Below, in pieces: positions 54,111 through 61,073 of a DNA stretch of 64,000 nucleotides. Source of the stretch: Erwinia sp. JUb26 (GTDB lineage: Bacteria > Pseudomonadota > Gammaproteobacteria > Enterobacterales > Enterobacteriaceae); assembly GCF_003751505.1 (NCBI RefSeq), contig NZ_RJVB01000005.1:310001-374000 (forward strand), in the 5' to 3' direction. How positions within the stretch are numbered: position 1 is the stretch's first letter; each line of letters begins with the position of its first letter. Below the pieces are notes generated by a model. It ran no database searches, was not told the origin of the DNA, and saw nothing but the letters and a program-made list of their open reading frames with translations. Both the position numbers and the translations under genes were made by a program.

Positions 54111-55634
54111 ATGGATACAATGACTCACAGTGATAAAACCGTCCTATTTGAGAATAATTCCGCCAGCGGCGATATCTCCCGTAACAGGGTACTATCGATT
54201 GGAATTTTTTTTGACGGCAGCGGCAACAACGCCAATAACACACTGAAACGTCTTGAAATGTGCTGTTCAGGTGAAAAAGGACGCGATCGTCTTTCGGACA
54301 GCGCTGACGCGGCCAGGCCCGGCGATATTTCCCGCTGTAGTTACGATAAGCATTACACCAATATTTACCGGCTGTTCACGCTTTATCGTGCGGAAGAGGG
54401 GAACTGGAATCCATTCCAGCGGGGATTATATATCAGCGGCGTTGGCACGCATTCCGGCCAGGCGGACAGTATTAGCGGTTTTGCCATCGGCGAAGGAAAG
54501 AGTGGCATTATTGCCAAAACGGACGAGGCGATTGCCGCGCTGCCCGCAATCCTACGGCAGGTTATCCGTCAGATGAATGGTGAAGGGCAGATTACCCGGC
54601 TGGCATTCGACCTTTTCGGCTTCAGCCGCGGCGCAGCGGCAGCACGCCACTTTGCTAATCGTCTTTTCGCGCAAGACCCCGCGCTGGCAGCCGCGATTGC
54701 AGAGGGATTTCAGGAAGCAACCTATCGCGATATGCCGACGATCGGCACCCGCTTTCTCGGACTGTTCGACGGCGTGGCGGGCATTGCGAATATGACCAAC
54801 AGATTCGATCCCCACTCCCCGCACGGCAGCGGCCTGCATCTGTCATTACCATCTGGCATTGCGCGCCGGGTCTTTCAAATTGCCGCAGCACACGAGTATC
54901 GCTATAACTTCTGCCTGCAAAGCGTTGCCCCCGATTATCCCGAACTGGTTCTGCCCGGCGCGCACTCGGATATCGGCGGCGGCTACAATCCGCAGGAAGA
55001 CGAATATCTGTTCCTCAGCCAGCCGCAGTTCACCTACGCGTCCGACGATACCCCGGACGAAATGACGGAGATCGTACGCCAGGCCCATGAACAGAGGCGA
55101 GTTCTGCAGAACAATCCGGCCCTGGAACCACTGCTGAACAGTGGTGAGCTGAAGGTTGAGAGCTGGCATGACGACTGGCTGCCGCCCAGCCAGGAAGGGC
55201 TTGCACGCAAACGCGTCGGGGCAGCAGTGGTATTTCGCCGTAGCCTGAACAACGACTGGGCGAAGATTGCGCTGCGGGTGATGGTGGACGCCGCGCAGGA
55301 GGCCGGCGTGATGCTGGCGAAAATCGATGAGGGCAGCCCTGAGTTCAGCCTGCCACCGGAACTGGCGCCGCTGTGCGACTTTGCCCGCGAACAGGGGAGA
55401 CGGCTGCGCAGCGGCAATACGCCACAGCCCTTCAGCCAGGACGATCTGCACATTGCCGGCCGCTACCTGCATTTTTCAGCCAGCTGGAGTGCGGTGCAGG
55501 AAGCGTTTGTCTGGCGCGATGGTAACTGGCTGACCACCGTTTCAAAGTCGGTCAGGCGAGAAACGTTTCTCAGCTATCCCGATCGTCCGGACGAGGGCTG
55601 GACGCGGACGATTTACCCCTTAGCGAAGCCGTAA
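54111..55634 (+). CDS. DUF2235 alpha/beta hydrolase, Tle1-like phospholipase effector candidate
   Basis: The 507-residue protein has GIFFDGSGNNANNT near residue 30, the DUF2235 N-terminal motif. The nucleophile elbow is FGFSRGAAAARHFANRL near 173 (GxSRG), then FLGLFDGVAGI with the likely acid and GAHSDIGGGY with the catalytic His. This is the catalytic layout of Tle1 phospholipases delivered by type VI secretion. There is no signal peptide, as expected for such cargo. No vgrG, PAAR or hcp gene is nearby, and no immunity gene follows. It may be an orphan effector delivered by a remote machine, or a housekeeping lipase. Confidence 0.75.
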   Translation: MDTMTHSDKTVLFENNSASGDISRNRVLSIGIFFDGSGNNANNTLKRLEMCCSGEKGRDRLSDSADAARPGDISRCSYDKHYTNIYRLFTLYRAEEGNWNPFQRGLYISGVGTHSGQADSISGFAIGEGKSGIIAKTDEAIAALPAILRQVIRQMNGEGQITRLAFDLFGFSRGAAAARHFANRLFAQDPALAAAIAEGFQEATYRDMPTIGTRFLGLFDGVAGIANMTNRFDPHSPHGSGLHLSLPSGIARRVFQIAAAHEYRYNFCLQSVAPDYPELVLPGAHSDIGGGYNPQEDEYLFLSQPQFTYASDDTPDEMTEIVRQAHEQRRVLQNNPALEPLLNSGELKVESWHDDWLPPSQEGLARKRVGAAVVFRRSLNNDWAKIALRVMVDAAQEAGVMLAKIDEGSPEFSLPPELAPLCDFAREQGRRLRSGNTPQPFSQDDLHIAGRYLHFSASWSAVQEAFVWRDGNWLTTVSKSVRRETFLSYPDRPDEGWTRTIYPLAKP

Positions 55635-55652
55635 ACGGACGTTTTGCACATC

Positions 55653-55669
55653 CGTTGATAAACAGTTTA
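55653..55669 (+). promoter_or_regulatory. Weak PhoP-box candidate in the mgtA upstream region
   Basis: CGTTGA-N5-AGTTTA has the spacing of a PhoP box, (T/G)GTTTA-N5-(T/G)GTTTA, but matches only four and five of six positions. No good -10 lies at the usual distance. It is listed because mgtA is a classical PhoP target. Confidence 0.25.
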
Positions 55670-55771
55670 GGAAAGGATTCTCGACATTTTTAACAGCGAT
55701 TGGAAGTTTTTGCATTAAAATCAACTACTTATTTTTATAATATTTATTACTTCCCGTCATTAATCTCCGGG

Positions 55772-55800
55772 TTTACATTGCGTAGCCCGGCGATTAGAAT
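55772..55800 (+). promoter_or_regulatory. Candidate sigma-70 promoter for mgtA
   Basis: TTTACA (55772-55777) and TAGAAT (55795-55800) each match consensus at five of six positions with 17-base spacing. A start near 55807 would give a leader of about 440 bases, in keeping with the long regulatory mgtA leader. A GGTTTA PhoP half-site overlaps the -35. Confidence 0.5.
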
Positions 55801-55866
55801 CTCGGCAAATTACTAACGGAGCCTGCATTTCATTGGACAGTCACCCTTTACCTGAACATTACTGAA

Positions 55867-55910
55867 GGCAGGTCCACTCCGTTTATTGTGTGCCTGCCGT
55901 AAAAAACGGC
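55867..55910 (+). promoter_or_regulatory. Overlapping hairpins in the mgtA leader
   Basis: GGCAGG (55867-55872) can pair with CCTGCC (55893-55898), while GCCGT (55896-55900) can pair with ACGGC (55906-55910). The two stems share bases and cannot both form. Such switches are typical of the magnesium-sensing mgtA leader, but the geometry here is read by eye only. Confidence 0.4.
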
Positions 55911-56068
55911 GGGCCATGCTGCAACTCTCTTCCGAGCTGTTTCATCCCGTAAATCAATTTCATTCGATCTGGTCTTCGCCAGCGGCGCTGCTGCATGGCC
56001 GGGCATCAGAGCATCCCTCTGCTGTCGGGCGATTTTTGCTGCGCGCCAGCATCACTAAGGAGCACACG

Positions 56069-56131
56069 ATGAAAGAACCTCCGTCACGAGAGAGGCGATG
56101 GCAGGATGAACCCGGGAGGATAACGCACTAA
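56069..56131 (+). CDS. mgtA leader peptide, MgtL-like
   Basis: A 20-codon frame with a perfect ribosome site (AAGGAG, eight bases before the ATG) begins MKEPPSRERRW and ends 117 bases before mgtA. In E. coli and Salmonella the mgtA leader encodes MgtL, a 17-residue peptide starting Met-Glu-Pro-Asp-Pro. Its acidic/proline start destabilises ribosomes when magnesium is low and so permits mgtA transcription. Here Glu-Pro-Pro sits at codons 3-5 and a basic run follows, as in MgtL. Sequence identity is otherwise low. The assignment rests on position, ribosome site and codon content. Confidence 0.65.
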   Translation: MKEPPSRERRWQDEPGRITH

Positions 56132-56197
56132 CGTTTCACGTCCTTTCCGTCTGCCTGCCACGCCTCCTTCCCTGAATTTACTGAAAAAACCTCGTTT

Positions 56198-56241
56198 GCA
56201 GGAGCCGTTCTCCTGCGCGTAAAAAAACTTCATTCAAGGAG
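56198..56241 (+). promoter_or_regulatory. Hairpin before mgtA able to compete with its ribosome site
   Basis: GCAGGAG (56198-56204) and CTCCTGC (56210-56216) form a 7-bp stem with loop CCGTT. The 3' arm could instead pair, through CTCCT, with the mgtA ribosome site AGGAG at 56237-56241. The sequence after the stem is A-rich, so it is not a standard terminator. Opening and closing of this stem could control translation. Confidence 0.45.
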
Positions 56242-56248
56242 CAGGCAG

Positions 56249-58924
56249 ATGAAAATGCATCACGCTAACCTGAAAAAGGCGCGCGAACTGGCGATCGCCA
56301 GCGCAGCCACACGGAGCCAGGAACACACCCTCGCTCAGCTGAATACTCAACGCCACGGGCTGACTTTTGAAGATGCCGCTGAGCGCCTGGAACACTACGG
56401 CACCAACCAGGTCGCCAGCGAAAAAGCACCGGCGGCCGCGGTACAGCTGCTTCAGGCGTTTAATAACCCGTTTATCTGGGTGCTGACCGCACTGGCGGCC
56501 ATCAGTTTTGTTACCGATTACCTGCTGCCGTTGAAGCGCGGTGAGGAGACCGATCTGACCGGCGTGATTATCGTCATGATCATGGTCAGCCTGAGCGGTT
56601 TACTGCGTTTCTGGCAGGAATATCGCACCAACAAAGCGGCGGAAGCGCTGAAATCACTGGTGCGTACTACCGCCACGGTCATACGCCGCAGCCACACGCA
56701 CAGTGAAGCGATGGAGATGGAAATCCCGCTGCAGCAGGTCGTGCCGGGCGATATCGTGCGGCTGTCGGCGGGGGATATGATCCCGGCGGACGTGCGTCTG
56801 CTGGCCTCGCGCGATCTGTTTGTCAGCCAGGCAGCCCTGAGCGGTGAAGCGCTGCCGATCGAAAAATATGACACGCAAAGCAGCCCAAATGTTGCCGGGC
56901 CAGTCAGCGAACAGGAGCTGCTCAGCCTGCCGGGTATCTGCCTGATGGGCACCAGCGTTGCCAGCGGCAGCGCGACGGCAGTGGTGGTGGCAACCGGTGG
57001 CCACACCTGGTTCGGCTCACTGGCCACCTCACTGCTGGGTAAGCGCCCGCAGACGGCGTTCGATCGCGGCGTGAACAGCGTCAGCTGGCTGCTGATCCGC
57101 TTTATGCTGGTGATGGTGCCGATCGTTCTGCTGCTCAACGGCTACAGCAAAGGCGACTGGAGCGATGCGCTACTGTTTGCGCTGGCGGTCGCGGTGGGGC
57201 TGACCCCGGAAATGCTGCCGATGATCGTCAGCTCCAACCTCGCGAAGGGTGCGATTGCCCTGTCGCGGCGGAAAGTGGTGGTGAAAAGGCTCAATGCCAT
57301 TCAGAACTTCGGCGCGATGGACGTGCTGTGCAGCGATAAAACCGGCACGCTGACTCAGGATCGCATCATTCTGTCTCACCACCTAGATTTGCACGACCGC
57401 AGCGACGAACGCGTACTGCAGCTGGCCTGGCTGAACAGCCGCCATCAGACCGGCGTGAAGAATCTGATGGATAAAGCCGTACTGGCCTTCAGCCAGGGCA
57501 ATATGGCGGTCAACGATCTGTGGCGTTATCGCAAAATTGACGAACTGCCTTTTGACTTTGAGCGCCGCCGTCTGTCAATTCTGCTGGCGGACCAGAACCA
57601 GCAGCAGATGCTGGTCTGCAAAGGGGCGGTGGACGAAATGCTGGCGGTTTCCCGCTTCTGGCGCGATGGCGATGAGATCCGCCCACTGGATGATGCCGCG
57701 CGTCAGCGTCTGCGTGAGCAGGCAGAGAGCTACAACCAGCAGGGATTCCGCGTGCTGGTTGTGGGCTGGCGGGATCTCGAGGCCAGCCCGCTCTCGCTGC
57801 CGCTGAGCATTCATGACGAGCGTGAACTGATTATCAGCGGCGTGCTGACCTTCCTCGATCCGCCGAAGGAGAGCGCGGCAGAGGCGATAGCGGCCCTGCA
57901 TGAAAACGGCGTCACGGTAAAAGTCCTGACCGGCGACAACGCGATTATTACCGCCAAAGTGTGCCGCGACGTGGGCCTGGAGCCGGGTGAACCGCTGTGC
58001 GGCAGTGCAATCGCGCAGCTTAGTGACGACGAACTCCGCCTGCTGGTTGAGCAGCGCACGCTGTTCTGCCGCCTGACGCCGCAGCAAAAAACCCGCGTGT
58101 TGCAGGCATTGCAGCACAACGGACATACGGTCGGCTTCCTCGGCGACGGCATTAACGATGCACCGGCGCTGCGCGCGGCGGACATTGGCATCTCCGTTGA
58201 TAGCGCTACGGATATCGCTAAAGAATCCGCGGATATCATCCTGCTGGAAAAAAGCCTGCTGGTGCTGGAGCAGGGCGTGATGACCGGGCGCGAAACCTTC
58301 GGCAATATAATCAAGTATCTGAACATGACCGCCAGCTCTAACTTCGGCAACGTCTTTTCGGTGCTGGTGGCCAGCGCGTTTATTCCGTTTTTACCGATGA
58401 TGGCGATCCATCTGCTGTTGCAAAACCTGATGTATGACCTGTCCCAGCTGGCGCTGCCGTGGGACAAAATGGACAAAGAGTTTCTGCGCAAACCGCGCCG
58501 CTGGGATGCGAAGAACATCGGGCGCTTTATGCTGTGGATTGGCCCCACATCGTCCATTTTCGATATCACCACCTTCTGGCTGATGTGGACGGTATTCGCC
58601 GCCAACAGCGTGGAAAGCCAGGCGCTGTTCCAGTCCGGCTGGTTTGTGGAAGGATTGCTGTCGCAGACGCTGGTGGTGCATATGCTGCGCACCCGCAAGA
58701 TTCCGTTTATTCAGAGCCGCGCCGCGCTGCCGGTGATGCTGGCAACCGGGCTGGTGATGATTGCCGGAATTCTAATCCCGTTCTCGCCGCTGGGCCACGC
58801 CGTCGGGCTGGTGCCGCTGCCGTGGAGCTACTTCCCGTGGCTGCTGGCAACGCTGCTCGGCTACTGCCTGGTTGCACAGGGCATGAAGCGTCTTTATATC
58901 CGCCGTTTCGGCCAGTGGTTCTGA
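56249..58924 (+). CDS. mgtA: Magnesium-transporting P-type ATPase MgtA
   Basis: The 891-residue P3B-type ATPase is close to E. coli MgtA (898). It has an N-terminal basic tail, membrane helix pairs, the actuator motif SGEALPIEKYD, the phosphorylation site CSDKTGTLTQDR with Asp near residue 364, KGAVDEML in the nucleotide domain, TGDNAIITAKV and GDGINDAPALRAADIGISVDSATDIAKE (hinge, cut to GDGINDAPALR). A C-terminal membrane bundle completes it. It imports Mg2+ down its gradient at ATP cost when Mg2+ is scarce. It sits between a leader with a MgtL-like peptide and a small MgtS-like protein. Confidence 0.93.
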   Translation: MKMHHANLKKARELAIASAATRSQEHTLAQLNTQRHGLTFEDAAERLEHYGTNQVASEKAPAAAVQLLQAFNNPFIWVLTALAAISFVTDYLLPLKRGEETDLTGVIIVMIMVSLSGLLRFWQEYRTNKAAEALKSLVRTTATVIRRSHTHSEAMEMEIPLQQVVPGDIVRLSAGDMIPADVRLLASRDLFVSQAALSGEALPIEKYDTQSSPNVAGPVSEQELLSLPGICLMGTSVASGSATAVVVATGGHTWFGSLATSLLGKRPQTAFDRGVNSVSWLLIRFMLVMVPIVLLLNGYSKGDWSDALLFALAVAVGLTPEMLPMIVSSNLAKGAIALSRRKVVVKRLNAIQNFGAMDVLCSDKTGTLTQDRIILSHHLDLHDRSDERVLQLAWLNSRHQTGVKNLMDKAVLAFSQGNMAVNDLWRYRKIDELPFDFERRRLSILLADQNQQQMLVCKGAVDEMLAVSRFWRDGDEIRPLDDAARQRLREQAESYNQQGFRVLVVGWRDLEASPLSLPLSIHDERELIISGVLTFLDPPKESAAEAIAALHENGVTVKVLTGDNAIITAKVCRDVGLEPGEPLCGSAIAQLSDDELRLLVEQRTLFCRLTPQQKTRVLQALQHNGHTVGFLGDGINDAPALRAADIGISVDSATDIAKESADIILLEKSLLVLEQGVMTGRETFGNIIKYLNMTASSNFGNVFSVLVASAFIPFLPMMAIHLLLQNLMYDLSQLALPWDKMDKEFLRKPRRWDAKNIGRFMLWIGPTSSIFDITTFWLMWTVFAANSVESQALFQSGWFVEGLLSQTLVVHMLRTRKIPFIQSRAALPVMLATGLVMIAGILIPFSPLGHAVGLVPLPWSYFPWLLATLLGYCLVAQGMKRLYIRRFGQWF

Positions 58925-58934
58925 GGGGGATAAG

Positions 58935-59027
58935 ATGAAGAAGGATAATTCAGCGATAGCGATCGTGTTGTTTTTTGTCGGGGTGGTGATTTTTTCCGGG
59001 GCGATACTGATGATATTTAGCGAATAG
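58935..59027 (+). CDS. 30-residue single-pass membrane protein, MgtS-like candidate
   Basis: An ATG ten bases after the mgtA stop, with GAGGGGGA upstream, opens a 30-codon frame. It starts MKKDNSAIAIVLFF and contains one hydrophobic span. Its end, FSGAILMIFSE, shares spacing with E. coli MgtS (FSG, five residues, FS) as I recall that 31-residue protein. MgtS binds MgtA and protects it from FtsH in low Mg2+. Salmonella MgtR and MgtU are other small proteins beside Mg2+ ATPase genes. E. coli mgtS is not next to mgtA, so linkage here would be new. Chance similarity in so short a hydrophobic peptide is possible. Confidence 0.6.
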   Translation: MKKDNSAIAIVLFFVGVVIFSGAILMIFSE

Positions 59028-59069
59028 GGGGTGGGGAAACGGGTTGCGGGTGGGTTCGGGTTGCTGCAC

Positions 59070-59201
59070 GTTTAAGTGACTGGCTTATCGGGGCTATCCG
59101 GAACACGGACCCGCTGCCACGTCCATGTTCGCTCGGCCTCGCACCTCCCTGTGCTCGGACGGTCCGTTAACCCGTCCATCCCCGATTGCCCGTAAACTAA
59201 G
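59070..59201. repeat. GC-rich hairpin-forming intergenic sequence
   Basis: The ends are imperfectly complementary: GGCTTATCGGGG near 59083-59094 against CCCCGATTGCCC near 59182-59193. Inside, GGACGG pairs with CCGTCC (about 59156-59178). No reading frame is credible. It resembles a dispersed palindromic unit. Confidence 0.4.
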
Positions 59202-59389
59202 GTGTTGCTGTTTTTAAAATCCGTCTCTTCCGGCTTCACACTCTTGTTTACCGGATTGAAATTGCTCAGGGGTCACTCGCAATAAAATGGGCTGATAGAA
59301 GGAAGTCCATAGATTAGAGAAAGTGAGTGCTGAACTCTAAAGCGACGAAGCGAATGCAATGAGAAGCTGCGGCACCACTTTAAAGTCTT

Positions 59390-59491
59390 AACGGTAAACG
59401 TGACGAGAAAGCAGTAACACCAAAGCCTGAACGGTGTACGTGACGAGGAAGCAGCGATCAATTCGCTTGAAAGGTGAACGTTACGGGGCAG
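59390..59491. repeat. Three repeat ends spaced exactly 40 bases apart
   Basis: Related 22-25 base units start at 59390 (AACGGTAAACGTGACGAGAA), 59430 (AACGGTGTACGTGACGAGGA) and 59470 (AAAGGTGAACGTTACGGGGC). The third is the left end of the longer repeat copy 1. This looks like tandem multiplication of one repeat terminus. Confidence 0.65.
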
Positions 59492-59626
59492 ATAAGCCGG
59501 GTGTCTGCCGCAGGGATGCGGCAGCCAAGCCCCCAGGGACCGGGTTCACGGCGACCCGGCGTTCTGCCCGTAACGGTCGCCCCGTTTCGCAGATCCCACC
59601 GCGACCTGCCCCGTAAAGGTCACCCC
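59469..59626. repeat. Long structured repeat, copy 1
   Basis: About 158 bases with complementary ends (GTTACGGGGCAG at 59480-59491 against CTGCCCCGTAAA at 59606-59617). An internal hairpin CTGCCGCA-GGGA-TGCGGCAG lies at 59505-59524. A second copy begins about 230 bases downstream and is nearly identical over some 120 bases. Confidence 0.8.
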
Positions 59627-59701
59627 GCTCACAGCCCCTGCCGCGAATAATCTCTGAACGACCAGATTAACGATCGTTATCTGGCCGCAACGCAATGAAT
59701 T

Positions 59702-59863
59702 GAAAGGGGAACCGTTACGGGACAGGTTAGCCGGGTGTCTGCGGCAGGGATGCCGCAGCCAAGCCCCCAGGGACCGGGTTCACGGCGACCCGGCGTTCTG
59801 CCCGTAACGGTCGCCCCTTTTCGCAGATCCCACCGCGACCTGCCCCATAACGCTTTAGAAAGG
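59702..59863. repeat. Long structured repeat, copy 2
   Basis: Direct copy of 59469-59626. The internal hairpin at 59739-59758 reads CTGCGGCA-GGGA-TGCCGCAG, so both arms changed together relative to copy 1 and the 8-bp stem is kept. Other differences are few. It ends one base before the stop codon of the leftward DUF4432 gene, so that transcript would carry it. Confidence 0.8.
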
Positions 59864-59864
59864 A

Positions 59865-61073
59865 TTACTCCTTCGCAATCGGTGTCTCACTAACCGCCAC
59901 GGTTTCATTACCCTGGATTTTCTGCACCCGTTGCTCAACCTGCTGCACCGCGCTGGCATCCTTCAGCAGGGAATAAGTCAGCGTAAACTCGGTGCTCTTC
60001 CCCGGCTGGAGCTGCTTAACGCGACCCTGTTCTTTCTCAATGGTCACCGGGTAGGCATAGTTCGTGCCTGGCTCAATCCCGGTCACGTAACCCTGCTTCT
60101 GCGTATCGGTATTTTTCCACATGGTCAGCAGCGGCAGCTGTTTGATATCGAACTCAATTGATGCGCCTTTGTCGCCCTTGCTGTTGATCACCGCGGCCAC
60201 AGTTTTACCGTTTTCATCGGCTTTCGGCGTGAGGTTAAACACCATCTCGTCGAAATCTTTAGTCGGCGCGCCGTAAACATTCCAGTCGTTCAGGCCTTTC
60301 TTCGCGTAATCGTTAAATGGTGAAACCGACTTCAGCGGCGCGATAAAGCGCGCGTCTTTTTCAAGGATCGGCGTACCGAAGTTGCTGTGATAGATAATCT
60401 GGTAATCGTGCGGATAGTCCGCGTGGTTGGTCAGCACATCGTGCACGGTAAAGGAGTCAGAGCCAGGCACGTAGCGCAGCTCGGTCCAGGTTTCGAGCTT
60501 CGCTTTTTTGAAGGTGGTTTCTTTCAGCAGGCCGCGAATACGGATTTCATGCGGCGCTTTTTCATCGACGATGACTTCCACTTTCGACGCTGGGGTATTG
60601 CCCGCTTTGCCGTGCAGCGTGTAAATCACGCCGTCTTTGGTCACCGGATGGCCGGTCCACTCAAAGCCGCAGCGCACCATCATTTCGTTAAAACCTTCCA
60701 GCCAGCCAAGGCCATTGCGGCTTTCCAGATTGATGTAAGCCGGATTGACGACCTCATCGACCGGAGAATCCCAGCCAAGTCGCACGCCGTGGCCGTTAAC
60801 ATGCAGCAGATCCATGCCTCGCGTTGGGCTAAGGGCGATGGTCAGGCCGTTTTTACTGGTGATGGTCAGCACTTTCGAGCCTTCCTGCTTACCACCGTGC
60901 AGAACCTTTTGCTGAATGCTGAAGTTCTCACCGGAAAGCTTCAGCTGCTGGCTGTTTACCTGCCAGTTTCCCTTTTCCACACTGGTTTCAGCATCCGTCA
61001 GCAGCCAGCTTTGCGCCGATGCCTGACCACAAATGAATGCCGTAATTAACCCTGCCAGAAGTCTTTTTTTCAT
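59865..61073 (-). CDS. Periplasmic DUF4432 / aldose-1-epimerase-like protein
   Basis: The ATG at 61071-61073 gives 402 residues with a signal peptide (MKKRLLAGLITAFICGQASA). AAAGGGA precedes it; a longer frame to 61118 is rejected. The mature part has the galactose-mutarotase fold features of DUF4432: SPTRGMDLLHVNGHGVRLGWDSP (key SPTRGMDL), GFNEMMVRCGFEWTGHP, and YHSNFGTPILEKDARF. These proteins bind sugars and may interconvert anomers. A periplasmic site is unusual for mutarotases. The gene is isolated and has a CRP-like site upstream. The substrate is unknown. Confidence 0.8.
   Translation of the reverse strand: MKKRLLAGLITAFICGQASAQSWLLTDAETSVEKGNWQVNSQQLKLSGENFSIQQKVLHGGKQEGSKVLTITSKNGLTIALSPTRGMDLLHVNGHGVRLGWDSPVDEVVNPAYINLESRNGLGWLEGFNEMMVRCGFEWTGHPVTKDGVIYTLHGKAGNTPASKVEVIVDEKAPHEIRIRGLLKETTFKKAKLETWTELRYVPGSDSFTVHDVLTNHADYPHDYQIIYHSNFGTPILEKDARFIAPLKSVSPFNDYAKKGLNDWNVYGAPTKDFDEMVFNLTPKADENGKTVAAVINSKGDKGASIEFDIKQLPLLTMWKNTDTQKQGYVTGIEPGTNYAYPVTIEKEQGRVKQLQPGKSTEFTLTYSLLKDASAVQQVEQRVQKIQGNETVAVSETPIAKE

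What the first reader, a model, noticed from the sequence alone, without database searches (positions are those of the whole stretch)
58935..59027. MgtS-like microprotein encoded directly behind mgtA
A 30-codon frame with a good ribosome site starts ten bases after mgtA and encodes one membrane span. Its C-terminal FSG-x5-FS spacing matches E. coli MgtS, which binds and stabilises MgtA. In E. coli mgtS is at another locus, while Salmonella has unrelated small proteins beside mgtB. Physical coupling of an MgtS-type protein to mgtA would be a neat and possibly undescribed arrangement. It is small enough to be missed by routine annotation.
Basis: partly seen in the sequence, partly recalled or inferred. 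Interest (0 to 1): 0.82.

Follow-up and report, generated by a model that had tools for sequence, protein, structure and literature searches.

The report
MgtR-like microprotein behind an MgtB transporter
A real 30-residue membrane protein is encoded right behind a magnesium pump gene in an Erwinia relative, but it looks more like a diverged version of Salmonella's MgtR peptide, which helps destroy its partners, than like E. coli MgtS, which protects its partner.

Summary
A 30-codon frame with a strong ribosome site starts ten bases after the Mg2+ ATPase stop. It lies behind the ATPase in 22 of 30 same-genus loci and is under purifying selection (pN/pS 0.28, 11 disjoint pairs). The interpretation largely fails. 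The ATPase is MgtB-type, not MgtA (tree support 100/100). The MgtS family is not detected in the window genome, and FSG-x5-FS occurs in only 4 of 21 genus sequences. The frame sits in the slot of Salmonella mgtR: five same-genus genomes still read mgtC-mgtB-frame, and the window's leader looks like such an operon after loss of mgtC. The genus peptides keep MgtR's length and the three small residues of its Ala-coil in register; peptides of other genera keep two of the three. No sampled genome has both this type and clear MgtR. Two genomes of another genus carry it behind mgtC instead. Best reading: a diverged MgtR-type regulatory peptide, here probably serving MgtB by steering it to FtsH. Sequence similarity to MgtR is weak and rests on the motif columns, it fails the NCBIfam MgtR cut-off, and its effect on MgtB is inferred, not shown.

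The parts
58935..59027 (+). MgtR-like single-span microprotein (30 aa), called 'E-type' in this report
58925..58929 (+). Shine-Dalgarno-like GGGGG directly behind the mgtB stop; purine-rich at this place in the 22 genus loci
56249..58924 (+). MgtB-type Mg2+ P-type ATPase (891 aa), the only Mg2+-type one found in this genome
   Evidence: NF011702 1643 bits; tree
56057..56260 (+). DNA homologous to the mgtC-mgtB intergenic region of Erwinia aphidicola locus L054, running into the start of mgtB
   Evidence: 76% over 213 columns
55832..55952 (+). DNA homologous to the stretch upstream of mgtC in L054; together with the piece above it suggests that mgtC was lost here
   Evidence: 81% over 122 columns
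56069..56131 (+). 20-codon upstream ORF MKEPPSRERRWQDEPGRITH with an AAGGAG site, in the intergenic piece, where mgtQ lies in Salmonella; possible leader peptide of that kind
   Evidence: mgtQ described in PMC8092293, passages only

Best explanation
The frame encodes a diverged MgtR-type membrane peptide, probably translated from the mgtB mRNA by ribosomes that finish mgtB (the Shine-Dalgarno-like site abuts the stop). Shown here: it is coding and conserved, it occupies the mgtR slot of an mgtC-mgtB-peptide operon that some relatives still have, and in the genus it keeps small residues at the three heptad places of MgtR's Ala-coil (A9, G16, A23 here; A10, S17, A24 in MgtR). Inferred: it inserts as one helix, packs through that face against a transmembrane helix of MgtB (and of MgtC where present), and hands its partner to FtsH, so that transporter level falls when it is not needed. 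In the window genome, which has no mgtC beside mgtB and no detected MgtS, MgtB is the likeliest partner.
For: Slot and operon: behind mgtB in 22 of 30 genus loci; mgtC directly upstream in 5 of those 22; the Salmonella-type locus L107 reads mgtC-mgtB-mgtR-mgtU and its MgtR ORF is letter-identical to the published S. Typhimurium MgtR. Leader homology suggests that the window lost mgtC. Tree: E-type and MgtR carriers sit in neighbouring parts of one MgtB clade, and L077 (E-type, mgtC upstream) lies on the MgtR side. Motif: the three Ala-coil columns are small (A, G, S or C) in 18, 21 and 21 of 21 genus peptides and in 10, 11 and 11 of 11 MgtR peptides; 8 of 530 natural TM segments have small residues at these three places. 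hhalign E-type against MgtR is gapless in register, 89-90%. Partners: both g69 genomes seen carry it behind mgtC, with the ATPase on another contig. Exclusion: none of the 11 genomes over the MgtR cut-off is among the 9 with a strong E-type hit, in 392 family genomes. Retention: 17 of 22 carriers lack intact mgtC, and 8 disjoint pairs without it still give pN/pS 0.29.
Against: It has no hit to the NCBIfam MgtR model (cut-off 35 bits). With the three motif columns masked only 3 of 21 genus peptides exceed the background 95th percentile on an MgtR profile, so similarity beyond the motif is weak. The window peptide scores only 6.5 bits on MgtR (4 of 530 background segments and 4.2% of shuffles as high). 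In six E-type peptides of other genera the first Ala-coil place is small in 0 of 6 (second 6, third 5 of 6). The WQI end of most MgtR is absent. Two of the 11 sequences in my MgtR set (L109, L126) are themselves below or without the family hit. Only 17 of 66 further MgtB-class loci showed an E-type or MgtR frame in the slot (my count), so the slot is often empty. The effect on MgtB is untested and the literature seen disagrees: no effect on MgtB stability (PMC6813294 section 3) against degradation (passages). In G019 the frame is intact although mgtC and mgtB are decayed.
Confidence: 0.6

Rival explanations
1. It is an MgtS-type stabiliser beside the ATPase: it binds the transporter and shields it from FtsH.
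For: FSG-x5-FS is shared with E. coli MgtS; the window peptide scores 4.5 bits on an MgtS profile (3 of 530 background segments and 3.65% of shuffles as high). No MgtU-like frame was seen behind the genus ATPases, so a protector could be useful.
Against: No PF22865 hit. A genus consensus scores 0.3 bits. The pattern is in 4 of 21 genus sequences and 0 of 7 from other genera. hhalign gives 15% over 16 columns. MgtS is reported to act on MgtA (passages), whereas this neighbour is MgtB-type.
Confidence: 0.07
2. It is an unrelated peptide in the same operon slot as MgtR: same kind of partner, different origin, possibly with a protective, MgtU-like or activity-tuning role.
For: Similarity largely vanishes when the motif columns are masked. 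51 of 530 natural TM segments have some heptad triple of small residues. The first motif place is not kept in other genera (0 of 6). MgtU, reported as a protector (passages), is encoded in the same operon elsewhere.
Against: Same slot, same length, motif register from the start codon, neighbouring tree position, no overlap with MgtR genomes, link to mgtC. MgtR-side sequences L126 and L197 have glycine at the second and third motif places like the E-type.
Confidence: 0.28
3. The frame is translated only to tune the mgtB mRNA (coupling or mRNA stability), and the peptide itself does nothing.
For: It abuts mgtB and is short; no terminator-like site was listed just behind it.
Against: Amino-acid level constraint, conserved small-residue columns, and occurrence behind mgtC in another genus.
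Confidence: 0.05

Closest known systems
MgtR of Salmonella (30 aa; mgtCBR/mgtCBRU operon; NCBIfam NF033229)
   Same: First ORF behind mgtB, 30 aa, one TM helix, polar N-terminus, small residues at the Ala-coil places, links to mgtC and mgtB.
   Different: No hit to the family model; no WQI end; mostly without mgtC in the genus; no MgtU-like frame behind it there (no genome-wide MgtU search was run); target untested.
MgtU of Salmonella (28 aa; NF040924)
   Same: Tiny single-span peptide encoded behind mgtB.
   Different: Second slot in the Salmonella-type loci; hhalign 1.7% over 5 columns; ends in arginine; reported to protect MgtB from FtsH (passages; one passage words it differently).
MgtS of E. 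coli (31 aa; PF22865)
   Same: Size, one span, FSG-x5-FS in the window's subclade.
   Different: In E. coli it lies at another locus (from the finding and recall; one search shows nothing annotated in the 179 bases fetched behind mgtA); reported to act on MgtA; no profile match; not detected in the window genome.

Membership tests
MgtR | Encoded directly behind mgtB in an mgtC-mgtB operon | tested here: met
   Fully in 5 genus genomes with mgtC; in the window behind mgtB, with no mgtC beside it
MgtR | About 30 aa with one TM helix | tested here: met
   Sequence and hydropathy
MgtR | Score above the NCBIfam NF033229 cut-off (35 bits) | tested here: not met
   No hit for the window peptide nor for a genus consensus that I wrote; genome search gives none in G000. 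It is therefore filed as MgtR-like, not as a member of NF033229
MgtR | Ala-coil: three heptad-spaced small residues | tested here: met
   A9/G16/A23 in the register of A10/S17/A24. The motif is described in PMC6813294 section 3, which names S17; the places 10 and 24 are my reading. In other genera the first place fails (0 of 6)
MgtR | Binds MgtC and promotes its FtsH-dependent degradation | not testable with these tools
   Bench test needed
MgtS | PF22865 match above 27 bits | tested here: not met
MgtS | Partner is MgtA | tested here: not met
   Neighbour is MgtB-type and no second Mg2+-type ATPase was found in the genome; binding itself was not tested
MgtU | NF040924 match above 33 bits | tested here: not met
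   No hit; cut-off seen
MgtB (for the ATPase) | Groups with Salmonella-type MgtB apart from MgtA | tested here: met
   MgtA branch 100/100, MgtB branch 100/100; NF011702 1643 bits against cut-off 975

The most novel reading that the evidence does not exclude
E-type peptides are a split MgtR lineage that changed clients: kept with MgtB after mgtC was lost in most Erwinia carriers, and with MgtC alone in another genus. They would be natural single-client versions of a two-client FtsH adaptor, in which client choice could be read from a 30-residue helix.
Probability: 0.35. Interest if true: 0.65.

Novelty: new variant of a known kind. Interest (0 to 1): 0.5.

Why it matters
Whether MgtR acts on MgtB, on MgtC or on both is reported differently in the papers seen here. 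Lineages that kept such a peptide with mgtB only, or with mgtC only, are natural experiments on that question. The case also shows how small proteins below family cut-offs can be recovered by slot, selection and motif register, and it turns a stabiliser reading into a probable degradation-adaptor reading that can be tested.

Tried and rejected
Rejected: MgtS kinship; MgtU kinship; weak DUF423 and NADH-oxidoreductase J hits, both below cut-off and taken as hydrophobic look-alikes. Tried without result: Rfam on 55500-59900, nothing at gathering score; terminator behind the ORF, counts no higher than in shuffles; mgtC remnants upstream in the window, nothing convincing; E-type remnants in the 8 genus loci without the frame, nothing convincing (first attempts read no files); order-level search of 394 genomes, 3 hits, one of them new, weak and with a stop. 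Not run: the peptide against PDB, a predicted fold, and genome-wide MgtU or genus-wide MgtS searches.

Rows left out. One search prints 114 MgtB-class rows (my count): 30 came with loci, 40 more were fetched, G034 was already held, 43 were not fetched (for G048 the contig ends 237 bases behind the gene). The MgtS profile rests on 12 loci with 4 distinct sequences, the MgtR profiles on 10 to 12 sequences, so these comparisons are coarse. The first pN/pS figures (0.259; 0.224 for seven hand-picked pairs) used ungapped ATPase comparison to choose pairs; one search repeats them on codon alignments and replaces them.

Full report
What is there. The frame at 58935-59027 is as described: ATG ten bases after the ATPase stop, a G-rich ribosome site, 30 codons, one hydrophobic stretch. 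The window lies on contig C5 of a 5.37 Mb genome. Named relatives of the frame are Erwinia and Pantoea: L051 (uncultured Erwinia) and L052 (Pantoea coffeiphila) have ATPases 95% and 97% identical to the window's.

Is it a gene. 37 genomes of the genus were searched. 30 have a match to the ATPase at E 1e-200 or better, and 22 of these carry the frame directly behind it, intact, 30 or 31 codons long. A profile search gives 23 of 37 genomes with a strong hit, the extra one being G019. The 8 ATPase loci without it are L023, L025, L031 and L032 (about 78-80% identical ATPase) and L034-L037 (66-68% identical, a separate branch); no convincing remnant was found. Over 11 disjoint nearest pairs, with ATPases aligned by codon, there are 91.8 synonymous changes on 228.5 sites and 82.2 non-synonymous on 728.5 (ratio 0.281, p 1.6e-20); the ATPase gives 0.139 in the same pairs. 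It is a protein-coding gene, under looser constraint than its neighbour.

The neighbour is mgtB-type, not mgtA. The best NCBIfam model is NF011702 at 1643 bits. In the family-wide search the scores fall into two classes; E. coli MgtA is 54% identical. A maximum-likelihood tree of 43 ATPases puts nine MgtA sequences, E. coli's among them, on one side and 34 MgtB-class sequences on the other, both branches 100/100; the window is in the second. The genome search with this ATPase gave no second Mg2+-type one, only weak partial matches. The naming trap is common: the annotated Enterobacter soli plasmid L177 calls its ATPase mgtA while the next genes are mgtR and mgtU.

What sits behind mgtB elsewhere. 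66 further MgtB-class loci, of 114 such rows printed, were read downstream. 17 of the 66 show an E-type (5) or MgtR-type (12) frame in the first slot by my count; many have no hydrophobic small frame there at all. In Salmonella-type loci a 30-aa ORF is followed by a 28-aa ORF; NCBIfam names them MgtR (77.8 bits) and MgtU (64.5 bits), and the first is identical to the published MgtR. E-type frames lie behind mgtB in three other genera (L061; L077; L104 and L127) and, more loosely, in L062. In both g69 genomes seen (L044, L046) the frame follows mgtC, about ten bases behind it from the ATG or overlapping it from a GTG, while the MgtB-class ATPase is on another contig.

Operon history. Five genus genomes (G003, G004, G016, G020, G032) read mgtC-mgtB-peptide, the order of Salmonella mgtC-mgtB-mgtR. 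L018 keeps a decayed mgtC. The window's 614-base leader matches L054 in two separate blocks, one upstream of mgtC and one between mgtC and mgtB, with nothing of mgtC between them; loss of mgtC is the simplest reading. 17 of 22 carriers lack intact mgtC (at least 85% identity to the L054 query); three of them (G001, G022, G031) have no hit to that query at 1e-20, and the other 14 have a fragment or remote MgtC-domain proteins, so a residual MgtC-type partner is not excluded. Eight disjoint pairs without intact mgtC give pN/pS 0.29. In G019 mgtC and mgtB are fragments and the frame is intact, which may be a recent loss.

Relation to MgtR, MgtS and MgtU. hhalign aligns the E-type family to MgtR without gaps over 27 columns (89-90%), to MgtS over 16 columns (15%), to MgtU over 5 (1.7%). 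Against 530 natural transmembrane segments, a genus consensus reaches 10.4 bits on MgtR (0 of 530 as high; 0.6% of 2000 shuffles) and 0.3 bits on MgtS (40% of background as high). The window sequence itself scores 6.5 on MgtR and 4.5 on MgtS, each near the top of background; its MgtS score goes with the FSG that only its subclade has (4 of 21 genus sequences, 0 of 7 others). MgtR binds MgtC through an Ala-coil of three heptad-spaced small residues, and S17I abolishes this for the endogenous peptide (PMC6813294 section 3). The matching E-type columns 9, 16 and 23 are small in 18, 21 and 21 of 21 genus sequences; in six peptides of other genera they are small in 0, 6 and 5. The MgtR set used (11 sequences) includes L109 and L126, which do not reach the family cut-off. 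With the three columns masked, similarity to MgtR largely disappears (3 of 21 over the background 95th percentile). Kinship thus rests on slot, operon history, tree, exclusion and motif register, not on bulk sequence.

Mutual exclusion. MgtR above cut-off occurs in 11 of 392 family genomes and strong E-type hits in 9 of 392; none has both. G187 has a weak hit of each kind at different places; its mgtB-linked peptide L126 scores 26.1 bits on MgtR. G181 has an MgtR-like frame (25.5 bits) followed by an MgtU-like frame (judged by eye), with no mgtC hit in the stretch and its MgtB-class ATPase on another contig. L126 and L197 have S, G, G at the three motif places (sequences).

Mechanism. Shown: coding, conserved, adjacent to mgtB, same operon order as mgtCBR in some relatives, small-residue face kept in the genus. 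Inferred: membrane helix that binds MgtB (and MgtC where present) and promotes FtsH degradation, as stated for MgtR in passages of papers seen. One source says MgtR has no effect on MgtB, so the sign is open. The upstream ORF at 56069 falls where mgtQ lies in Salmonella; mgtQ orthologues are described for Erwinia tasmaniensis (PMC8092293, passages).

Literature. Searching mgtR with Erwinia found one paper, whose Erwinia passages concern mgtQ; mgtCBR with Pantoea found one paper on another organism (listing only). In the listings and the passages read I saw no description of this peptide. The two primary papers on MgtU and MgtS are not held and were not read.

Noticed in passing
window 59498-59595 and 59732-59829 (- strand): Two copies of a roughly 100-base element resembling Rfam Ysr224 below its gathering score (28.6 and 29.7 bits against 70).
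   Followed up: no
window 59043-59093: A 51-base stretch behind the ORF that recurs at 86% identity elsewhere in the genome (G000:C8:235961-236011).
   Followed up: no
L149 (G019), about 1498-2278, - strand: mgtC and mgtB reduced to fragments while the peptide frame stays intact.
   Followed up: partly
L197 (G181), about 1864-2056, + strand: An MgtR-like frame followed by an MgtU-like frame, with no mgtC hit in the 3.5 kb fetched and the MgtB-class ATPase on another contig: an apparently orphan pair.
   Followed up: partly
L063, L064, L066 (genus g151): A different 30-residue hydrophobic frame (MKPSRHTFLVVIFFLTLISLINVTMLLTII or a near copy) behind mgtB, 48 bases after the stop in L063 and L066; one of them was scanned and met no Pfam or NCBIfam cut-off.
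   Followed up: partly
L189-L192 (G034, G033, G010, G005): Four genus genomes have an intact mgtC far from a more distant MgtB-class ATPase and no such peptide behind either.
   Followed up: partly
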